From Streptomyces humicola (GTDB lineage: Bacteria > Actinomycetota > Actinomycetes > Streptomycetales > Streptomycetaceae): a stretch of DNA of 64,000 nt. Positions 9,831 to 19,930 of this stretch are shown here, piece by piece. Made by a program: the position numbers and the translations under genes. Position 1 is the first letter of the stretch, and the number at the start of each line of letters is the position of its first letter. The stretch is taken from positions 62,001-126,000 of the forward strand of contig NZ_JANFNG010000007.1 in NCBI RefSeq assembly GCF_024436035.1. The letters are read 5' to 3'. A model generated the notes under the pieces. That model searched no databases. It saw only the letters and a program-made list of their open reading frames with translations, and had not been told where the DNA came from.

Positions 9831-10703
<873 letters not shown>

Positions 10704-10775: not shown

Positions 10776-13700
10776 CTACAGCGCGGTGAGCGGCACCTGG
10801 ACCGTACGGGCCTCGCCGTCGCCGAGGTGCAGCAGCCCGCGCCCGGGCTGGACGGCCTGGCCGATCGCGCTCCGCTGCAGCCGGACGCCGATCAGGTCGG
10901 CATCCGACATGTTCTGCGGCGAGAGCAGCAGACCACGCCGGGCCTTCTTCATCTCCACCTGCCACCCGGAGAAGCCGCCGCACACGTCGTCCGCGTCACC
11001 GGCGATCACCACGGCGATGTCCTTGCTCATCGAGCGGCGCACCACCTGGCTGAGGAGCTCGCCCGCATCGCACTGGCGCAGCAGCTCCGCGTCGTCGACG
11101 ATGATCGCCGCCGGGCCCTGCACCCGGTCCAGCGCCTCCTGCATCTCGGCCTCGGAGATCTCCTCCTCCGTGAAGTAGCCGATCACGCCCGGTGCCTGCT
11201 TCAGACGGCGCAGCGGAGACTGGCGGCGCGGCGCCGCCAGGATCACCTGGGTGCCGACCGACATCAGCGAGCGCGTCATCGTCAGCAACGCGGTGGAGCG
11301 CCCCGAGCGCGGCGGGCCGGCGATGACGAACGCCGGATTGCCCTGACGCAGATCCGGGCCCATGGCGGTGAGCTGGTCGCCGCCGACCGCGGTCAGCGCC
11401 CACAGCGGGCTGCTGACGGCCTGGTCGGCGACGTCCCGCAGCTCCCACGCCTCCTCGAAGCTGATCCGGCTCGGCAGCACGTCCACCCGGAACGGGCGGC
11501 GCGACCGCGGCACGTTCGCCCAGCGGCCCTTCGCCCATTCGGCGATGGTGCCGATCGCCGCCGCCTGTGCCTGACCGCTGGGGTCCTCGGTGAGCAGTGC
11601 GACCTGTGCCTCGACGGCGCCCTGACGGAAGGCGCGGCCGGGCGCCATCTTCTCCGGGACCTTGCGCGGGTTGAGACCGATGACGGAGAAGTCGGACGGG
11701 TCGCTCAGCTGGAACGCCAGCTTGTTCTCGGTCAGCGTCGAGATCCGGCCGATGAGCACCGTGCGGTCACCGGAGATGATCACGTGGATGCCGACCGAGG
11801 CACCTTCACGCATCAACTGGAAGATGGTGTCCGTGAGCGCACCCGAATTCATCTCGCCGAGCGAGGGCAGGAAGCCCTCCCAGCGGTCGAGCAGCAGCAC
11901 GATGTGCGGCAGCCGCTCGTTCTCCGGAACGCCGAGACGCTGCTCGTTGATGTCGGTGAAGCCGCGCTCACCGAGCCGCGCCATGCGCCGCTGCACCTCG
12001 GCCGACAGGTTGTTGATGAGCCGTTCAGCGCGATCGGGCTCGTTGGCCCTGACCACGGCACCGCAGTGCGGCAGCTGGGTCAGCGCAAGCAGCGCACCGT
12101 TGCCGCAGTCCAGACCGTAAAGGTGCAGATCCGCGGGCGAGTTGGCGCGCGTGAGCGAACCCGCGATGGTGCGCAGCGCTTGCGAGCGGCCGCTGCGCGG
12201 CGAACCCGCGATGATCAGGTGGCCGAACGTCGGCAGCTCGATCGAGGTGGTGCGGCGTGCCTGCTGCGAGGGCAGGTCCTCGACGGCGAACGGCGCCGGG
12301 AGCAGACCGTCCCGCGACAGGTAGCGCGGCGGCTCCAGGTCGTCCAGCGTGGTGGACTCGGGGAGCGCGGGCAGCCACGGGCTGTGCTGCGGCGGCAGCC
12401 CCAGCTGCTCGTTGGCGCCGATGATCGCGTCGACGAGAACCGCGAGGTCGGTGAGCAGATCGTCGTCGTTGGACTTCGGGCCCTGCGGGCGCTCCGGCGC
12501 CGGCTTGCCCAGCGCCTCCCACCCGACCGGAACCGTGAACGGCGTGGGGGCCGTCGTTGCGACCTGGCCCGGCCGCCGGCCGCCGACCCGTCCCGACTGG
12601 AACGGCAGCAGCGAGGAGGCGCCGAGGCGCACATATGCGCGGCCCGGCGTGGACTTGGCGATGTGGCCGGCGTCCGGCGCGTCGATGACGTCCGAGGACT
12701 CGGAGGCGTCCGTCACGCGCAGTGCGATCCGCAGGTTGGTGTTGGCGCGGATCTCGGGCGAGACGACGCCGGACGGGCGCTGCGTGGCCAGGATCAGGTG
12801 AATGCCCAGCGAACGACCTCGCTGGGCGATGTTGACCAGACCCGTGACGAAGTCCGGCAGCTCGCGCGCCATCGATGCGAACTCGTCGATGACGATGAGC
12901 AGACGCGGCATCGGCGCGAGCGACGGGTTGGTGCGCATCGCGACGATGTAGTCCTCGAGATCCTTGGTGCCGGCCGCGGCGAGGATGTGCTCACGGCGGC
13001 GCAGCTCCGCGCCGAGTGACTCCAGCGCCCGCTCCACCAGGTGCGTGTCGAGGTCGGTGACCATGCCGACGGTGTGCGGCAGCTTCACACAGTCCTTGAA
13101 CGCCGATCCGCCCTTGTAGTCGACGAGGACGAAGGTCATCGCGTCCGGCCGGTTGGCGACGGCGAGCGAGGCGACGATGGTCTGCAGCAGCTCCGACTTA
13201 CCGGAACCGGTGGTACCGGCGACCAGGCCGTGCGGCCCGTCCCGCACCAGGTCGATGGCGAACGGCCCGTCGAAGGATGCGCCGACCACCGCGCTCGTGG
13301 AGCGGCCGCTGAGCGACCAGCGCGCCGCGATCCCGGCCGTCGTCGGCGGCTCGAGGTCGATGACGTCGAGCAGCCGGCAGGCGTCGGGCAGCGCCGCGCC
13401 GTCGTCGCCGCTGACGTCACGTATCGGGGCGATCGAACGGGCGACCTGCTCGCACCACTCGGGCGAGACGCAGTCGGGACGCACCTGGGCGACCGGCTCC
13501 CGGCCGGCCATCGAGACCGACAGCAGCCCGTAGTAGTCCTCCTCGACCAGCGCCTGGCACTCCTCGGGCAGCAGCCGCCGGTCGGCGTCGAGGCAGATCA
13601 GATGGATTCCGACCTTCGGGCCGTCGCGCAGGATCTGCGTCAGGCCCGGCAGCGCGCGCAGCCGCCGCGAGCCGTCGAGGACGACGAGCGTGGTCGGGCC

Positions 13701-15173
13701 GCTCCAGATCTGGTTGGCCTGCATTCCCGCCTCACGTGCCGCGTCCTGACGGGCGGTGACCTGGGCGAGCAGCTCGCTGATGCGGCGGGCCACGCTGTCG
13801 GCGTCCGTGCCGATCAGCGCCATCGCCGACTGGCCCTCACGGGCGCGGGCGTGCGGCAGCCACCGTACCCACTCCCAGCTGTGCCGCCCGCTCGGGTCGG
13901 TGAGCACGCAGACCGAAAGGTCGGCAGGGGAGTGAAGCACCGCGGCCTGGGCTATCAGCCAGCGGCCGATGGCCCGCGGCACCTCACCGCGTCCCGCGAT
14001 GCCGAGCACGCCGTGGACCGTCATCGGCACCGCGACCGGCACGTCCATCAGGTTGCGGTGCGAGGTGCGCCGGTGCTCCTCCTGCGCCGGGTCGGAGACC
14101 TCGACCTCCGACGGCAGCGTGCCCGTGCCGACCCGCAGCAGCCCGTAGTCGGCGTCGGCGCGCCGACGCTCCCACAGCCGCATGCCGGGCCCGGTCGCGG
14201 TGATCAGCACCTGGGCCGGGTCGGGGCACAGATCGCGCGCCGCGCCTGTCTCGGCGGCGATCGCCTTGCGTGCCTGCCGCTCGATGGAGTCCTTCTGCTT
14301 CTCGTAGTCGGCGAGGGTGTGACGGAACGACTTCTTGCCGTGCTTACGGTCGTTGACGTAGTTGCCCACCATGGTCAGAGGGCTCAGGAGTGCCATGAAC
14401 AGATACGTCGTCTGATGCATCGTCATGGCCATCACGCCGGAGCCGACGAGCGGCACCGCCGCCATGATCCACGGCAGGGGACGCGCCTCACCCTGCTTGG
14501 GCTTGGCCGGCAGGCTGAACTTCGTCGGGCGCGGCGGCGGGGTGATGCGTGGCGGCCGGTTGTAGTCCAGGCCCGTGCCGTCCTCCGAGGGCTTCAGCGC
14601 GGCATCGGGGAACGACGGATGCTGCAACTCGATCAGCGACTGGCCCACGCCGATGACGCTGCGCCGCCGCCAGGGCTTGGTGGAGGTGAGCGGCTCGCCG
14701 TCGAGTGTGACGGAAGCGCCCGCCGACGGGTGCACGGTCACCGTGCCGTCGATCGCGACGTCCACCTCGACTGCGGTCTGCGGCAATTGCGGGTCGGCGA
14801 GGCGGATCCACGCATCGGCTCCGGAGCCGACGACGGCCACGCCGGGCCCGAGCCGGTACACGCCACCGGCATCGGGGCCGCCCACGACCCGTACCTCGAC
14901 GGTGCCCTGGGCATCGGGCGACTGCACCGGCGCCGGCGCGGCTATCGAGACCAGCGCTCCGTCCCGTACGGGCGAGGCGTCGAGGCTCACCTCGGGGTCG
15001 AGCATGAAGCCGTTGATGTGGAGGGCGGGCGGGCCCTGCCCGTCGTCGGGCCGCCCGAGCTGCTGGGCGATCTCGGTGGCGAGCGCGCCGACCGGCGCCG
15101 CGGGATCGGCGTCGACCAACATGTCCGAACGGTCCGCGCGGACCGGGTCGATGACGCTGAGCTGCAGTTCCAC
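10776..15173 (-). CDS. EssC/EccC-like FtsK-SpoIIIE triple ATPase with FHA-like domain
   Basis: A 1465-residue protein with the layout of type VII secretion motor ATPases. Residues 1-85 form a small beta/alpha domain, and 90-190 an FHA-like domain without the usual Arg and Ser/His phosphothreonine contacts. Two membrane helices lie near 233-270. ATPase 1 has an intact Walker A (AGTTGSGKS, 652-660) and Walker B (LLIVIDEFAS, about 758-767). ATPases 2 and 3 have GSPRSGRS (990-997) and GPPRSGRS (1286-1293), with Arg instead of the catalytic Lys. The GTG at 15173 was chosen for its AGGGGGA site 5 bases upstream. A divergent WXG100-like gene lies across 383 bases. No eccB, eccD, eccE or mycP is in the window. 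Confidence 0.88.
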   Translation of the reverse strand: MELQLSVIDPVRADRSDMLVDADPAAPVGALATEIAQQLGRPDDGQGPPALHINGFMLDPEVSLDASPVRDGALVSIAAPAPVQSPDAQGTVEVRVVGGPDAGGVYRLGPGVAVVGSGADAWIRLADPQLPQTAVEVDVAIDGTVTVHPSAGASVTLDGEPLTSTKPWRRRSVIGVGQSLIELQHPSFPDAALKPSEDGTGLDYNRPPRITPPPRPTKFSLPAKPKQGEARPLPWIMAAVPLVGSGVMAMTMHQTTYLFMALLSPLTMVGNYVNDRKHGKKSFRHTLADYEKQKDSIERQARKAIAAETGAARDLCPDPAQVLITATGPGMRLWERRRADADYGLLRVGTGTLPSEVEVSDPAQEEHRRTSHRNLMDVPVAVPMTVHGVLGIAGRGEVPRAIGRWLIAQAAVLHSPADLSVCVLTDPSGRHSWEWVRWLPHARAREGQSAMALIGTDADSVARRISELLAQVTARQDAAREAGMQANQIWSGPTTLVVLDGSRRLRALPGLTQILRDGPKVGIHLICLDADRRLLPEECQALVEEDYYGLLSVSMAGREPVAQVRPDCVSPEWCEQVARSIAPIRDVSGDDGAALPDACRLLDVIDLEPPTTAGIAARWSLSGRSTSAVVGASFDGPFAIDLVRDGPHGLVAGTTGSGKSELLQTIVASLAVANRPDAMTFVLVDYKGGSAFKDCVKLPHTVGMVTDLDTHLVERALESLGAELRRREHILAAAGTKDLEDYIVAMRTNPSLAPMPRLLIVIDEFASMARELPDFVTGLVNIAQRGRSLGIHLILATQRPSGVVSPEIRANTNLRIALRVTDASESSDVIDAPDAGHIAKSTPGRAYVRLGASSLLPFQSGRVGGRRPGQVATTAPTPFTVPVGWEALGKPAPERPQGPKSNDDDLLTDLAVLVDAIIGANEQLGLPPQHSPWLPALPESTTLDDLEPPRYLSRDGLLPAPFAVEDLPSQQARRTTSIELPTFGHLIIAGSPRSGRSQALRTIAGSLTRANSPADLHLYGLDCGNGALLALTQLPHCGAVVRANEPDRAERLINNLSAEVQRRMARLGERGFTDINEQRLGVPENERLPHIVLLLDRWEGFLPSLGEMNSGALTDTIFQLMREGASVGIHVIISGDRTVLIGRISTLTENKLAFQLSDPSDFSVIGLNPRKVPEKMAPGRAFRQGAVEAQVALLTEDPSGQAQAAAIGTIAEWAKGRWANVPRSRRPFRVDVLPSRISFEEAWELRDVADQAVSSPLWALTAVGGDQLTAMGPDLRQGNPAFVIAGPPRSGRSTALLTMTRSLMSVGTQVILAAPRRQSPLRRLKQAPGVIGYFTEEEISEAEMQEALDRVQGPAAIIVDDAELLRQCDAGELLSQVVRRSMSKDIAVVIAGDADDVCGGFSGWQVEMKKARRGLLLSPQNMSDADLIGVRLQRSAIGQAVQPGRGLLHLGDGEARTVQVPLTAL

Positions 15174-15556
15174 GGCCGTCCCCCTGGGCGATGAATCTTG
15201 ATGCATACGTGCGTGCGCGATGCCTGCGCGGCGCCTGCGCATGTCTGGTGCATGTGTGTGCGAAGCCGCTCGGCATGTGGTGAGGACCATGATGCCTGAC
15301 GGGTACGACAGCCGCCCAGGCGAGGCCGGGGGAAGACGTGTGGGAACGTGGGGGAAAGGTGAATGTGTGTTGACGGTATGGGGACGGTGCCTGGCTGCGG
15401 CCGCGCGGCCGGAACTGGGGGATGCAGCGCCGCGTCCCCATCCGTAAGCTGAACAACCGGCAAGGCCAAGCAGGTTGTCATGAAACCTGCTAAAAACGAT
15501 GTAGCCAGGAGCCACGGGGGACAGGCCCTGAGGCGTGAATTGAGGGGTTAGCCGAG
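15174..15556. other. Divergent intergenic region, ATPase / WXG100-like genes
   Basis: 383 bases without a convincing gene. It must hold the promoters of both flanking genes. A ttgtca box at 15475-15480 could be the -35 of the WXG100-like gene, but no good -10 stands at the right distance. Alternating purine-pyrimidine tracts rich in gcatg/tgtgtg lie near 15200-15260. No repeat or RNA gene was recognised. Confidence 0.6.
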
Positions 15557-15856
15557 ATGGCAAACGTAAATGTCACTTACGAAGAGATGCAGGCAGCTGC
15601 CACGAAGCTGACCAACGGGCAGAACGAGATCACCAATCAGTTGCACGCGCTTCAGAGCTACGTCCAGCAGTTGGTGCAGCACGGCTACGTGACTGACCGC
15701 TCCTCGAAGGCGTTCGAGCAGTCGTACGCCGAGTTCAACAAGGGCGCGACGCAGACCATCGACGGCCTGACCGGCATGGCGAAGTTCCTGCAGCAGGCGG
15801 CCGACGCCTTCCGCCAGGCCGACGAGAGCCTGGCCCACGGCATCGGCAAGGGCTGA
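15557..15856 (+). CDS. WXG100-like (Esx) small helical protein
   Basis: A 99-residue, all-helical protein with no signal peptide, the size of ESAT-6/WXG100 proteins. Helix 1 is about residues 8-38 (YEEMQAAATKLTNGQNEITN) and helix 2 about 50-90 (SSKAFEQSYAEFNKGATQTI). The turn between them reads QHGYVTDRSS, so the Trp-x-Gly signature is absent. The spacing and the family-typical FEQSYAEF pattern are kept. These proteins form helical-hairpin dimers exported by FtsK-like ATPases; the divergent neighbour encodes such an ATPase. The TGA at 15854 is followed by a perfect 17-bp hairpin terminator. Confidence 0.75.
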   Translation: MANVNVTYEEMQAAATKLTNGQNEITNQLHALQSYVQQLVQHGYVTDRSSKAFEQSYAEFNKGATQTIDGLTGMAKFLQQAADAFRQADESLAHGIGKG

Positions 15857-15898
15857 GCACGCATCTGGGTACTGGCGCGCAGGCGCTGGCACGTTGAA

Positions 15899-15936
15899 CG
15901 GTGCGCCGCCGAGGCATTGGCCTCGGCGGCGCACCG
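15899..15936. terminator. Bidirectional hairpin terminator
   Basis: A perfect 17-bp inverted repeat with a 4-base loop (attg) sits between the converging WXG100-like gene and the kinase gene. It is placed to stop transcription from both sides. Confidence 0.85.
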
Positions 15937-15950
15937 CCGTCTTTTCGGGG

Positions 15951-17606
15951 TCATCCCCCCGACACGTTGCAGATCTCGGGCGCAGCCGCATACTCCAACT
16001 GCCCGTTCGCAGCCTTCACGACCGATGCGGCGACGTAGCAGTCACCGGACTGCACGTCCTCGGCCGCGGTGAAGACCGCCTCGGGATTGGCCGGCGACGT
16101 CTCCTTGAGCTGGCCGCCCTGGGTGCCGATCGCCGCCTGCGCGGCGTAAGCAACCACCGATTGCAGGCTCTTCGGGGCCTTCCACGTCACCTGCACGGTC
16201 CCGTTCACCTTCCGCGCTGTCACGTCCTGGGGCATCAGCGCGGCCAGTTCGCTCTGCGGCACGGACTTGCCCTGCGCGGGAAGCGCCGGAAGCGCTGAGC
16301 TGCCGGACGCGGATGCCGACGCCGACGGCGACGCAGATGCGTGCGCGTTGGCCTTCGACGCCTTGTTCTGCTGCAGATACCACGTGATCCCCGTGGCCGC
16401 CGCCGCGAAGAGGACCAGGACCGTGCCCGAGACGATCCACATGCGGCGGCGCCGCTGCGCCTCCGCCTCCGCCTCCGCGCCTATCCGTTCCGCCTCCGCC
16501 TGCTCCTCCGGCGTGATGTCGTCCGCAGGGTCCCAGCCCGGCAGCATCGGCTCGGGCTCCGGTTCCGGATCCAGCGCCGGTACCCGCGCGGCGTACCCGG
16601 CGGGCAGCATCATGCGGAGCACGCGGTGCACCTCGTTGAGCGGAGGGCGGCCCTCCGGGTTCACCGACATCATGCGCGTGATGAGGTCGAAAAGCTGCGG
16701 CGGTACGTCATGCCGGTTCGGCGGCGGGAACTCGCCGCGCAGCACCTCGTTGTAGAGCGCGGACCAACTGGTGCTTCCAGCCTCGGCATAGGCCGGAAGG
16801 CCGTTGAGAAGCGCGTACAGCGTCGCGCCGAGGCTGTAGATATCGGCGGACGGGCCCGGCTTCTCCCAGCCGAACATCTCGCGCGCCGCATACATCGGGT
16901 CGAAGAGGGCACCGAGCTGCGGTGCGGACCGCTGAATGATGCGCGCGATGCCGTGATCGGCGAGCAGCGCGTCGCCGGCCTCGTTGAAGAGGACGTTCGA
17001 CGGGCGTACGTCCAGATGCAGGACGCCACGGCGGTGCGCGGAACTCAGCGACAGCGCCAGCCGTATACCGATGACGATGGCCTCGTCCACCGGGAAGGGA
17101 CCCGAGTTGTTCAGCCGTGACTGGGCATTTCCTCCCTGGCAGAACTGCTCCACGAGATAGGGGCGGTTGTCGGGGGTGAACCCCGCATCCTCCACCACCA
17201 CGGAGCACGGGTGCTTCGCCGCGGCACCCGCGGAGAGCAGCTCGGAGTGCGCGGCCAGGCGCAGTCCCTCGTCCTCCACCGTCAGATTGAGGACTTTCAG
17301 TGCGACCTCCTGCCCGGTCGCGTCCTCGCGGCAGAGCAGCACGCTGCTGTGCCGGCCGGTTCCGGCCCGCCGCAGCAGTTGAAACCCTTCCGGCAGCCGG
17401 CCGGACAACCCGTCCGCCTCAGCGGCGAGCCCGGCGTAACCCCCGCCGCCCGACGACCCCGTGCCGTAATCGGCCCGTTCGGCCCACGCGCCGCCACCGG
17501 TCCCGCCGGGGCCACCCACCCCGGCGCCACCGCCGAAGCTTCTGTCCCCACCCAGGCTCCCGGCGCCGCCCATGTCATTCCGGCCCCATCCCGGCGTCCG
17601 GTCCAC
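15951..17606 (-). CDS. Membrane Ser/Thr protein kinase (PASTA-less, PknB-type)
   Basis: A 551-residue receptor kinase. A Gly-rich head (1-65) precedes the kinase domain: nucleotide loop RAGTGRHSSV, VALKVL lysine at 104, catalytic loop HLDVRPSN with Asp199 and Asn204, and DHG instead of DFG at 217-219. The APE motif is replaced by AARE. Catalytic Lys and both Asp residues remain, so activity is possible. One membrane helix lies at about 390-411. An Ala/Ser-rich stalk then leads to an outside domain of about 100 residues resembling a fibronectin III fold. The GTG at 17606 follows a GGGAGGG site; ATG 17573 is an alternative. It adjoins the type-VII-like pair and may regulate it. Confidence 0.85.
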   Translation of the reverse strand: MDRTPGWGRNDMGGAGSLGGDRSFGGGAGVGGPGGTGGGAWAERADYGTGSSGGGGYAGLAAEADGLSGRLPEGFQLLRRAGTGRHSSVLLCREDATGQEVALKVLNLTVEDEGLRLAAHSELLSAGAAAKHPCSVVVEDAGFTPDNRPYLVEQFCQGGNAQSRLNNSGPFPVDEAIVIGIRLALSLSSAHRRGVLHLDVRPSNVLFNEAGDALLADHGIARIIQRSAPQLGALFDPMYAAREMFGWEKPGPSADIYSLGATLYALLNGLPAYAEAGSTSWSALYNEVLRGEFPPPNRHDVPPQLFDLITRMMSVNPEGRPPLNEVHRVLRMMLPAGYAARVPALDPEPEPEPMLPGWDPADDITPEEQAEAERIGAEAEAEAQRRRRMWIVSGTVLVLFAAAATGITWYLQQNKASKANAHASASPSASASASGSSALPALPAQGKSVPQSELAALMPQDVTARKVNGTVQVTWKAPKSLQSVVAYAAQAAIGTQGGQLKETSPANPEAVFTAAEDVQSGDCYVAASVVKAANGQLEYAAAPEICNVSGG

Positions 17607-18733
17607 TGACCCTCCCGTACCTACGCACTTCAATGCTCAACGGCCCCCGTATGCCCGGCCGCGCGCCCAACGTACCGCGCACGGCGTGCCACCTGGTCAG
17701 TCAAGGGGCCCCGCGGACTTGTTCGGTACACGATCGGAATCAGCCGTCCCACCGGCCGGAGGCCAGGGGGAGGATGACGGCGCCGTCACGGATCGGCCTC
17801 GCGCGGCTGAGTCCCGCAGCGCGGGCATGCCCAAGTGATGCAAGTATTCGATGTTCCCCCGTCCCCTGATGAGGATCTGCTGATGTCTCAGCCGCCGCGG
17901 CCACCGCCGTCGGGACAGCCGTCGTACGGCTACCCCAGCATGGCCAGCGGCCAAGTCCTCAGGGGTGGGGTACACCAAATCCCTACACACAGTCCGGTCA
18001 ATATCCTCAGGCCGGGTACCCGCAGCAGCAGCCGTGACTCCGTATCTGTACCTCCCGGCCGACACGATCAGTGTCGAACAGACCGCATATGGGCAGGGCC
18101 CCGGAATACCCGGCAGTGAAGTGCTGTGGCAGAACGACACCCTTGTTGTGGCGGCTACATCTGATGCTGCAGGTCAAACCGGTGACTATAACGTCGGGGT
18201 TGCGGTATTCCGTTGACGACGAGGGGTCGAGTCATCCGGGCTGGTGACGAACCCGAAAGCACCTCTGCAGGCCATCGAGGCCGCAGGGATCGAGCCAACG
18301 TGCGCCGTAACCACTGAATTCGGTCGGGGCTCGGTTGTCCGAAGGGGATCGGTGTGTCCAGCCACGTGTACCGACTGTCAATTCTGCAGGCGCCCGGTCT
18401 CGGCGGTCGTCGGCTGGGTGGGAGAGATTCCCGGGTGCCGGCTCGTCCGGTCCTTGTCGCCGACTGACTGATTCACATCATGCTCAGCTGAGCGCGGCCG
18501 ACGCCTCCGATCGCCTCGTAGGCGGCCCGCGGCGGTACGACGCGGTCGGCACCCCTGGGGGCCGGGTCGCGCGCATTTCGGCGGAGTCTCCCCCTCAGGG
18601 CTGCAGACGTGGGTTCCCGCAGGGTCGGCGGCGCCGCCCGTGAGGCCGGAACGACGGCGCCCGGTGGCCCCCGAAAGGGCCTGGCGTAGTCTGGGCACGT
18701 CCGTCGCATGACCCCTCCCGAAAGGACGCCGCG
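17607..18733. other. 1.1-kb low-coding region with gene remnants
   Basis: No intact gene is convincing between the kinase and mqnC. Codon bias toward G/C in the third position fades here. 17607-17834 should hold the kinase promoter. 17883-18037 is a frameshifted remnant. The frame ending at 18216 gives a tail such as EVLWQNDTLVVAATSD that looks once-coding but has no good start. An open frame at 18244-18471 has no ribosome site or recognisable domain. 18600-18733 should hold the mqnC promoter. Confidence 0.6.
17883..18037 (+). pseudogene. Frameshifted remnant of a Pro/Gln-rich membrane-protein N-terminus
   Basis: An ATG opens MSQPPRPPPSGQPSYGYP, a common start of streptomycete membrane proteins with proline-rich cytoplasmic heads. 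After a frame change near 17950-17962 the same style resumes as TPNPYTQSGQYPQAGYPQQQP, then ends at a TGA. The membrane part expected next is absent. This is best read as a decayed or truncated gene. A sequencing error alone would not restore the missing body. Confidence 0.55.
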
Positions 18734-19930
18734 GTGCCCGACAAGGCCGACCTGCAGTCCGTACTCGACCGTGCCGTCGCAGGGGGGCGGGTCACGCCTG
18801 AGGAGGCGCTGGAGCTGTACCGGCATGCGCCGCTGCACGCGCTGGGGCAGGCGGCGGACGCGATCCGCCGCCGCCGTTACGCAGGTGTCGAGCACATCGC
18901 CACGTACATCATCGAGCGCAACATCAACTACACCAATGTCTGCGTGACGGCCTGCAAGTTCTGCGCCTTCTACGCGCCGCCGAAGAGCGACAAGGGCTGG
19001 ACCCGCGATCTCGACGACATCCTGCGCCGGTGCGCCGAGACGGTGCAGCTGGGCGGTACGCAGATCATGTTCCAGGGCGGGCATCACCCTGACTTCGGTG
19101 TCGAGTACTACGAGAAGCACTTCGCCGCGATCAAGAAGGAATTCCCGCAGCTGGTGATCCATTCGCTGGGGGCGTCCGAGGTCGAGCACATGGCGAAGGG
19201 CTCGGGCGTGAGCGTTGAGGAGGCGATCCGGCGCATTCACGCCGCGGGGCTCGACTCATTTGCGGGGGCGGGTGCCGAGCTGCTGCCGGAGCGGCCGCGT
19301 ACGGCGATCGCGCCGCTGAAGGAGTCCGGCGAGCGGTGGCTGGAGATCATGGAGACCGCGCACCGGCTCGGGGTCGAGTCGACGTCGACGATGTTGATGG
19401 GCACGGGCGAAACGAACGCCGAGCGGATCGAACATCTTCGGATGATCCGAGACGTACAGGACCGCACAGGAGGCTTCCGTGCGTTCATTCCGTACACCTA
19501 TCAGCCGGAGAACAATCATCTGCGCGGACGCACGCAGGCGACGATCTTCGAGTATCTGCGGATGATCGCGATCGCTCGCATCTTTCTCGACAATGTGGCG
19601 CACATCCAGGGCTCGTGGCTCACTGTCGGCAAGGAAGCCGGGCAGCTGTCGCTGCACTACGGCGCCGACGACCTGGGGTCGGTGATGCTGGAGGAGAACG
19701 TGGTCTCCTCGGCCGGCGCCAAGCACCGCTCCAACCTGATGGAGCTGATCCATCTGATCCGTACGGCAGGGCGGGTGCCGGCGCAGCGCGCGACCACGTA
19801 CGAGCACCTGGTCGTGCACGACGACCCGGCCAATGACCCGGTCGACAAGCACGTCGTGTCGCATCTGTCCTCGACCGCGATCGAGGGGGGCACCGCCCAC
19901 CCCGAGCTCAGGCTCATCGACGCGAACTGA
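18734..19930 (+). CDS. mqnC: Cyclic dehypoxanthinyl futalosine synthase MqnC
   Basis: A 398-residue radical-SAM enzyme of menaquinone synthesis. It cyclises dehypoxanthinyl futalosine (the product of MqnB) to the spiro compound used by MqnD. The cluster motif is CVTACKFC (Cys70, 74 and 77), followed by GGTQIMFQGGHHPDFG, GAGAELLPERPR and FIPYTYQPENNHL, characteristic of MqnC rather than MqnE. The GTG start is preceded by AAAGGA. A truncated amidohydrolase-like gene begins 9 bases after the stop, suggesting cotranscription. Confidence 0.95.
   Translation: MPDKADLQSVLDRAVAGGRVTPEEALELYRHAPLHALGQAADAIRRRRYAGVEHIATYIIERNINYTNVCVTACKFCAFYAPPKSDKGWTRDLDDILRRCAETVQLGGTQIMFQGGHHPDFGVEYYEKHFAAIKKEFPQLVIHSLGASEVEHMAKGSGVSVEEAIRRIHAAGLDSFAGAGAELLPERPRTAIAPLKESGERWLEIMETAHRLGVESTSTMLMGTGETNAERIEHLRMIRDVQDRTGGFRAFIPYTYQPENNHLRGRTQATIFEYLRMIAIARIFLDNVAHIQGSWLTVGKEAGQLSLHYGADDLGSVMLEENVVSSAGAKHRSNLMELIHLIRTAGRVPAQRATTYEHLVVHDDPANDPVDKHVVSHLSSTAIEGGTAHPELRLIDAN

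What the first reader, a model, noticed from the sequence alone, without database searches (positions are those of the whole stretch)
10776..17606. Orphan type-VII-secretion-like island with its own receptor kinase
Three adjacent genes form a minimal set: an EssC-style FHA-like/FtsK triple ATPase, a divergent WXG100-sized protein, and a membrane Ser/Thr kinase with an outside domain. The window holds no EccB, EccD, EccE or MycP gene. An ATPase with an FHA-like head beside a kinase suggests kinase-gated secretion or a non-secretory use of the motor. What is seen is gene content and motifs; the joint function is inference.
Basis: partly seen in the sequence, partly recalled or inferred. Interest (0 to 1): 0.72.

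Follow-up and report, generated by a model that had tools for sequence, protein, structure and literature searches.

The report
Stripped-down type VII secretion core
Three neighbouring genes in a Streptomyces-family bacterium look like the bare core of a protein-export machine (a motor, a small carrier protein and a membrane kinase) that is probably used to export antibacterial toxins encoded elsewhere in the genome, and its kinase may show how a related machine came to carry a dead kinase.

Summary
The three genes are real: an EssC-type FtsK ATPase (10776-15173, -), a WXG100 protein (15557-15856, +) and a membrane Ser/Thr kinase (15951-17606, -). They are three separate transcription units, not an operon. 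The genome (100% complete by estimate) has no EccB, no EccD/YukD and no EssB hit, so this is the only type VII secretion system (T7SS) found in it. It is not a lone oddity. EssC+WXG100 sits beside mqnA across Streptomycetaceae, and in relatives carries RHS/T7SS-signal toxins, small WXG partners and immunity genes. The same kind of effector module lies elsewhere in this genome. The kinase is always within about 8 kb of EssC (12 of 12 family genomes that have it). The FHA head has lost the phosphothreonine-binding residues, and three relatives carry kinase orthologues lacking the catalytic Lys, Asn and Asp. The best reading is a T7SSd-like secretion core whose kinase docks on EssC as EssB does in T7SSb. 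Two features differ from published T7SSd: a ubiquitin-like domain fused to EssC and an FN3 outside domain on the kinase. All functions are inferred. Verdict: new variant of a known kind.

The parts
10776..15173 (-). EssC-type ATPase, 1465 aa: Ubl - FHA - two TM helices - three FtsK-type ATPase domains (GTG start)
   Evidence: TIGR03928 E=3.7e-174, FtsK_SpoIIIE E=6.7e-58; start codon and RBS read from sequence; dN/dS 0.105 against the same-genus relative
14934..15173 (-). N-terminal ubiquitin-like (YukD/EccD-type) domain of EssC, residues 1-80
   Evidence: hhalign to EccD Ubl alignment Prob 96.5, E=8e-10; 60 column-shuffled controls at most Prob 2.5; beta-beta-alpha-beta in AF2 model; two EssC relatives hit PF08817 directly but below cut-off
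14613..14915 (-). FHA domain of EssC, residues 87-187, lacking phosphothreonine-binding residues
   Evidence: FHA fold Z 17.0, 97 residues, rmsd 1.6 to 3gqs; GR, SxxH and NG positions absent in alignment
12771..13274 (-). first ATPase domain of EssC, intact Walker A GTTGSGKS and Walker B LLIVIDEF; second and third domains have degenerate P-loops (GSPRSGRS, GPPRSGRS)
   Evidence: Pfam FtsK_SpoIIIE stretch; motif alignment across 29 sequences
15174..15556 (.). 383-bp intergenic region between the divergent essC and WXG100 genes; presumed promoters
   Evidence: gene positions; no sigma-70-type consensus site found
15557..15856 (+). WXG100 protein, 99 aa, VTD in place of WXG
   Evidence: PF06013 E=1.9e-18 over cut-off; orthologues next to EssC
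15899..15936 (+). transcription terminator of the WXG100 gene (17-bp stem, T-rich tail)
   Evidence: fold z-score -4.3
15951..17606 (-). membrane Ser/Thr kinase, 551 aa: kinase domain - one TM helix - FN3 outside domain
   Evidence: Pkinase E=2e-32; catalytic residues K104, D199, N204, D217 present; dN/dS kinase domain 0.068, outside domain 0.40
15963..16253 (-). outside FN3 domain of the kinase, residues 452-548
   Evidence: AF2 pLDDT about 60-85 here; VIA Z 10.4, 92 residues, rmsd 2.5 to FN3 monobody 6bx5

Best explanation
[quoted passage not shown] EssC is the membrane motor. Its ubiquitin-like domain stands in for the separate EsaB/YukD protein of T7SSb. The WXG100 protein is the EsxA-like obligatory co-exported partner. 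Substrates are RHS and T7SS-signal toxins with their own small WXG partners, encoded at unlinked loci in this genome (contigs C16 and C66, and less surely C20). The membrane kinase is the counterpart of EssB/TsdD: its cytosolic kinase domain docks on the Ubl-FHA head of EssC and its FN3 domain reaches into the cell wall. Phosphorylation probably modulates the system in this lineage but is not required for it in general. Shown here: gene identity, domain architecture, loss of phosphothreonine-binding residues, co-inheritance, dead-kinase orthologues, and effector modules in the same genome. Inferred: export, docking, and what the kinase phosphorylates.
For: Gene identity. The whole genome has no EccB, EccD/YukD or EssB, and only one WXG100 over cut-off, this one, yet it has T7SS-signal proteins: an RHS toxin with T7SS_signal and a weak C-terminal nuclease match, beside a WXG100-like partner and a 231-aa protein. 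The 231-aa protein is 77% and the partner 57% identical to genes that lie between WXG100 and EssC at the mqnA locus of relatives. Relatives carry effector and immunity genes at this locus. EssC dN/dS 0.105, like mqnA 0.122; kinase domain 0.068. The FHA lacks phosphothreonine-binding residues, while another EssC clade has them. Kinase orthologues in G002, G018 and G059 lack catalytic Lys, Asn and Asp. Precedent: YukC pseudokinase binds YukB FHA domains, apparently independent of phosphorylation (PMC9600267).
Against: No secretion or binding data exist. No cell-wall-spanning component (EsaA, TsdI, EccB-like) was found in the window; the fn3 gene that could play this role in relatives is not at this locus and was not searched for in this genome. 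The toxins may leave by another route; the genome also has an EssC-like 1081-aa protein on contig C39. The kinase domain is under strong purifying selection here, which suggests that activity matters in this lineage.
Confidence: 0.68

Rival explanations
1. Kinase-gated secretion: the kinase phosphorylates a threonine on EssC or a partner, the FHA head reads it, and export is switched on by an outside signal sensed by the FN3 domain.
For: Kinase domain with catalytic residues under strong purifying selection and a faster-evolving outside domain. Kinase always next to EssC. Another EssC clade has an intact FHA and in some loci a kinase neighbour.
Against: The FHA of this EssC and of all its 39-94% relatives examined has no Arg, Ser, His or Asn at the phosphothreonine-binding positions. 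Three relatives keep the locus with a dead kinase.
Confidence: 0.2
2. The kinase belongs to a separate fn3-MoxR-DUF58-transglutaminase signalling cluster (like Bifidobacterium PFNA) and only happens to sit beside EssC.
For: In 8 of 12 kinase-bearing genomes of the family this cluster lies in the same locus, in most of them with the kinase as its last gene. In Bifidobacterium the homologous cluster kinase phosphorylates the MoxR ATPase (PMC6803598).
Against: This genome (no transglutaminase homologue), G001, G006 and G017 lack the cluster at the locus but keep the kinase beside WXG100/EssC. No orthologue of the kinase was found away from EssC. A distant EssC+WXG100 pair is directly joined to such a cluster (L033, L034), which suggests that the cluster itself is part of the secretion system.
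Confidence: 0.15
3. A decaying remnant: the locus has lost its substrates and partners and no longer secretes.
For: Effectors and the fn3 cluster are missing here though present in relatives. A second EssC paralogue in the genome has lost its first ATPase domain region. A 1.1-kb gap beside the kinase has no intact gene.
Against: All three genes are intact with dN/dS well below 1, EssC equal to the neighbouring housekeeping gene mqnA. Effector modules persist elsewhere in the genome.
Confidence: 0.1
4. Non-secretory use of the motor, for example in cell division or DNA movement.
For: FtsK-family ATPase; weak matches to FtsK and TraB.
Against: Domain order is EssC-like, paired with WXG100 and with effector modules in relatives. 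Best solved relatives are EccC and YukB.
Confidence: 0.04

Closest known systems
T7SSd (Garrett, Higginson and Palmer 2024, PMC11217815)
   Same: Actinomycetota; WXG100 (TsdA), EssC with FHA (TsdC) and membrane Ser/Thr kinase (TsdD) without ecc or ess genes; RHS and other toxins nearby
   Different: FHA phosphothreonine-binding residues lost here but reported conserved in TsdC; ubiquitin-like domain fused to EssC here, whereas no ubiquitin-like protein was found in T7SSd; kinase outside domain is FN3, not helical; TsdH and TsdI not found in the window; the paper does not mention Streptomyces
T7SSb (EssC/YukB with EssB/YukC pseudokinase)
   Same: FHA on the EssC N-terminus without phosphothreonine-binding residues; kinase-fold single-TM partner; dead-kinase versions in three relatives
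   Different: No YukC/EssB family member in 41 genomes; one Ubl plus one FHA instead of two FHA domains; kinase keeps its catalytic residues in this genome; FN3 instead of helical outside domain; EsaA and EssA not searched
T7SSa (ESX)
   Same: EccC-related motor and WXG100 substrate
   Different: No EccB or EccD found in the genome; motor has an FHA domain
PFNA cluster of Bifidobacterium (pkb2-fn3-MoxR-DUF58-transglutaminase-prpC)
   Same: In relatives the same kinase is the last gene of a fn3-MoxR-DUF58-transglutaminase cluster
   Different: No such cluster at this locus, and no transglutaminase homologue in this genome; the two PFNA papers checked do not mention FtsK, WXG or secretion

Membership tests
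T7SS in general | EccC/EssC-type FtsK ATPase encoded with a WXG100 protein | tested here: met
   linkage in relatives
T7SS in general | export of the WXG100 protein by the ATPase | not testable with these tools
   needs a secretion assay
T7SSa (ESX) | EccB | tested here: not met
   no PF05108 match in the whole genome; 37 of 41 genomes searched have one
T7SSa (ESX) | EccD with YukD-type domain | tested here: not met
   no PF08817 match in the whole genome; 39 of 41 have one
T7SSa (ESX) | EccE and MycP | not tested
   no dedicated genome search was made
T7SSb | EssB/YukC family protein | tested here: not met
   PF10140: 0 of 41 genomes, with Bacillus subtilis control positive
T7SSb | two N-terminal FHA domains on EssC | tested here: not met
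   one Ubl and one FHA
T7SSb | EsaA and EssA | not tested
   no search made
T7SSd | TsdA WXG100, FHA-bearing TsdC and membrane kinase TsdD together | tested here: met
T7SSd | conserved phosphothreonine-binding residues in the FHA of TsdC | tested here: not met
   definition from PMC11217815
T7SSd | no ubiquitin-like component | tested here: not met
   Ubl fused to EssC
T7SSd | TsdI (large Ig-like envelope protein) and TsdH | tested here: inconclusive
   no candidate among the genes called near the trio; fn3 protein present in several relatives; the rest of this genome was not searched for them
T7SSd | TsdC branch of the EssC tree | not tested
   no named TsdC sequences could be fetched
PFNA cluster | transglutaminase, MoxR, DUF58 and fn3 genes beside the kinase | tested here: not met
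   no such genes at this locus; no transglutaminase homologue in the genome at E<=1e-20; present in 8 of 12 relatives with the kinase

The most novel reading that the evidence does not exclude
Streptomycetaceae hold an undescribed T7SS subtype at the mqnA locus: a machine with a Ubl-FHA-EssC motor, a WXG-less WXG100 partner and an FN3 kinase, working without any known ecc, ess or esa membrane partner. Its kinase ranges from apparently active to dead among relatives, and so is a living intermediate on the route to the EssB pseudokinase. The fn3-MoxR-DUF58-transglutaminase cluster, known as a host-signalling operon in Bifidobacterium, would be an accessory of this secretion system.
Probability: 0.35. 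Interest if true: 0.75.

Novelty: new variant of a known kind. Interest (0 to 1): 0.56.

Why it matters
T7SS in Streptomyces has been discussed mainly as ESX. This locus suggests a second, simpler system at a conserved chromosomal place, used with antibacterial-type toxins. In this genome it is the only T7SS found, which makes it a candidate for the smallest T7SS. The mix of intact and dead kinases in one orthologous set gives a direct way to ask why T7SSb carries a pseudokinase and whether phosphorylation was the ancestral control. The fused ubiquitin-like domain suggests where the 'missing' component of T7SSd should be looked for.

Tried and rejected
Two larger genome searches failed (EssC in the order; kinase in 200 family genomes); smaller ones worked. 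The AF2 model of the full kinase is poor (mean pLDDT 47), so only its outside domain is used. Rejected: that the ORF antisense to WXG100 (15548-15991, -) is the small gene (no WXG100 match). Rejected: that the same-genus relative G001 also lacks T7SSa; it has no EccB match but does have EccD and EccC-like matches, so only this genome is called T7SSa-free. Considered and dropped: DNA-translocase role; selfish island (G+C even at about 68-72% across the trio; same place beside mqnA in relatives). The 1.1-kb gap between kinase and mqnC gave no homology to effector genes, so no decayed effector can be claimed. Pseudokinase origin: the tree fits a single change, so two independent losses are not claimed; long branches make this unsure. 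A structure second look listed only FHA chains for the EssC head, so the Ubl rests on profile comparison and secondary structure rather than on a solved-structure match. EssB did not appear in the structural match list for the kinase model, which tells nothing given the model quality.
Full report
WHAT IS THERE. The window holds an EssC-type gene at 10776-15173 (-), a WXG100 gene at 15557-15856 (+) and a membrane Ser/Thr kinase gene at 15951-17606 (-). EssC matches TIGR03928 at E=3.7e-174 (below the curated cut-off) and FtsK_SpoIIIE at E=6.7e-58. The small protein matches PF06013 over its cut-off at E=1.9e-18. The kinase matches Pkinase at E=2e-32. The genes are three separate units: essC and the WXG100 gene diverge over 383 bp, and the WXG100 gene ends in a strong hairpin at 15899-15936 before the convergent kinase gene. 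On one side lies an mqnA-like gene (9840-10703), on the other an mqnC/mqnE-like radical SAM gene (18734-19930) (names from sequence resemblance and gene order).

DOMAINS. EssC residues 1-80 form a ubiquitin-like domain of the YukD/EccD type: profile comparison with EccD gives probability 96.5 and E=8e-10, against at most 2.5 in 60 column-shuffled controls. The AF2 model has beta-beta-alpha-beta order there, and two EssC relatives match PF08817 directly, though below the cut-off. Residues 87-187 are an FHA fold (Z 17.0 over 97 residues, rmsd 1.6, to 3gqs). Two TM helices follow (read from sequence), then three ATPase domains. Domain 1 has intact Walker motifs; domains 2 and 3 have degenerate P-loops. 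The kinase has one TM helix and an outside fibronectin type III domain (Z 10.4 over 92 residues). Its kinase domain retains Lys, Glu, Asp, Asn and Asp, in unusual HLD and DHG motifs. The WXG100 protein has V-T-D in place of W-x-G, as in its close orthologues; more distant ones in Streptomyces have T-T-(S/T/A).

WHOLE GENOME. The window's genome (7.07 Mb, 100% complete by estimate) has one WXG100 protein over cut-off, this one. It has no EccB, no EccD/YukD and no EssB/YukC, while 37 of the 41 genomes searched have EccB and 39 have YukD. EccE, MycP, EsaA and EssA were not searched. A second EssC paralogue on contig C44 lacks the middle of the protein (matches only at about residues 1-193 and from 823 on). 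An EssC-like 1081-aa protein lies on C39 beside two kinases.

CANDIDATE SUBSTRATES IN THE SAME GENOME. Contig C16 has a module of a WXG100-like protein (122 aa), a 231-aa protein without Pfam match, and a 1548-aa RHS protein with a T7SS_signal head and a weak match to a non-specific nuclease near its C-terminus. C66 has a T7SS_signal protein with a small partner gene. C20 has an RHS protein with weak WXG-type head matches followed, one small gene later, by a SUKH immunity gene. The 231-aa protein of C16 is 77% and the small partner 57% identical to genes that lie between the WXG100 gene and essC at the mqnA locus of L057 (Streptomyces sp. SPB162); S. fildesensis (L059) is similar. The substrate module therefore belongs with this core and lies elsewhere in this genome.

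RELATIVES. EssC lies beside mqnA in the Streptomycetaceae loci whose flanks were read, at 94 to 54% identity, mostly with a divergent WXG100 gene; the G002 and G018 loci do not show mqnA in the stretch read. In Streptomyces and Wenjunlia the locus carries T7SS_signal proteins, WXG100-like partners and immunity-like genes. The same-genus relative G001 has a WXG100_2 protein and a SUKH-4 gene beside the kinase. The kinase is found in 8 of 41 genomes, exactly the 8 that have the close EssC (60% or more), always in the same locus. Among 101 family genomes, 12 have the kinase and all 12 have EssC within about 8 kb; the VTD-type WXG100 gene is at the locus in 11 of the 12 (not seen in G059). Genomes share ancestry, so these counts are not independent events.

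THE FN3-MOXR-DUF58-TRANSGLUTAMINASE CLUSTER. In 8 of the 12 kinase-bearing genomes such a cluster is at the locus, in most of them with the kinase as its last gene. It resembles the PFNA cluster of Bifidobacterium (PMC6803598, PMC8430577), whose papers do not mention FtsK, WXG or secretion. A distant EssC clade has the order fn3, MoxR, DUF58, transglutaminase, EssC, WXG100 (L033, L034). The window's genome has no homologue of the transglutaminase at E<=1e-20 but has kept the kinase. This suggests that the kinase works with EssC/WXG100, and that the cluster is an accessory. Both points are inference.

KINASE GATING TESTED. In this EssC and in its 39-94% relatives examined, the FHA lacks the Arg, Ser, His and Asn used to bind phosphothreonine, while an EssC clade at 30-36% identity has them. 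Kinase orthologues in G002, G018 and G059 have lost the catalytic Lys, Asn and DFG-Asp while the locus keeps EssC and effector genes. On the tree these three fit one change. In the window's lineage the kinase domain is under strong purifying selection (dN/dS 0.068) and the outside domain much less (0.40); EssC has 0.105, the neighbouring mqnA 0.122. So catalysis is probably used in this lineage but is dispensable in others. In Bacillus subtilis the YukC pseudokinase domain binds the FHA domains of YukB, apparently without phosphorylation, and those FHA domains also lack the binding residues (PMC9600267). The same arrangement is the simplest reading here.

COMPARISON WITH KNOWN SYSTEMS. The closest published system is T7SSd (PMC11217815): WXG100, FHA-bearing EssC and membrane kinase in Actinomycetota, described from Olsenella and Bifidobacterium. 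Two stated features are not met here: conserved phosphothreonine-binding residues, and absence of a ubiquitin-like component. The kinase's outside domain is FN3 rather than helical, and TsdH and TsdI were not found at the locus. It is therefore described as T7SSd-like and not filed as T7SSd. EccB and EccD (T7SSa) and EssB (T7SSb) were tested and not met. Only one paper in the library uses the name T7SSd, and the literature searches found no description of this Streptomycetaceae locus; the library lacks most subscription journals, so this is not proof of novelty.

LIMITS. No secretion, binding or phosphorylation data exist. Genome-wide absence rests on profile searches of a draft assembly. The branch of the EssC tree could not be tested against named TsdC sequences.

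Noticed in passing
L031 4446-6959, L091 7395-9809, L092 6889-9485, L094 9312-11817 (genomes G026, G032, G031, G029): Another EssC clade with an intact phosphothreonine-type FHA (seen in L030-L032) stands in a row with a WXG-like gene, a kinase and a NarL-type response regulator; the L031 kinase has a ricin-type lectin outside domain. A candidate for true kinase-gated secretion.
   Followed up: partly
L042-L047, EssC at about 7.7-12.2 kb (3.5-7.9 kb in L046): EssC homologues at 55% identity stand alone, with no WXG100-like gene detected within 6 kb by a profile of the VTD type, in several genomes of one genus of the order.
   Followed up: no
L073 4498-5193; L057 6805-7479; L035 5787-6428; L041 12811-13446: A 200-230 aa family ('WWEFDIHP', no Pfam match) recurs in many effector modules next to small WXG partners; it may be a secretion chaperone.
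   Followed up: partly
L029 1827-9503 (G000 contig C39): A 1081-aa EssC-like protein with an FtsK-type domain diverges from two Ser/Thr kinase genes near what looks like a release-factor 2 gene; a second ATPase-beside-kinase arrangement in the same genome.
   Followed up: no
L028 7312-9847 (G000 contig C44): A second EssC paralogue next to Flp-pilus-type genes matches only at its two ends (about residues 1-193 and 823-1463), so it looks decayed by internal deletion or broken by assembly.
   Followed up: partly
window 17634-18733: A 1.1-kb stretch between the kinase and the mqnC-like gene has only broken frames (including a 'SGQPSYGYP' stretch); only its first 170 bp match the same-genus relative.
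   Followed up: yes
window 15963-17381: Within the kinase gene the outside FN3 domain evolves about six times faster at dN/dS (0.40) than the kinase domain (0.068), as if it met a changing partner or signal.
   Followed up: partly
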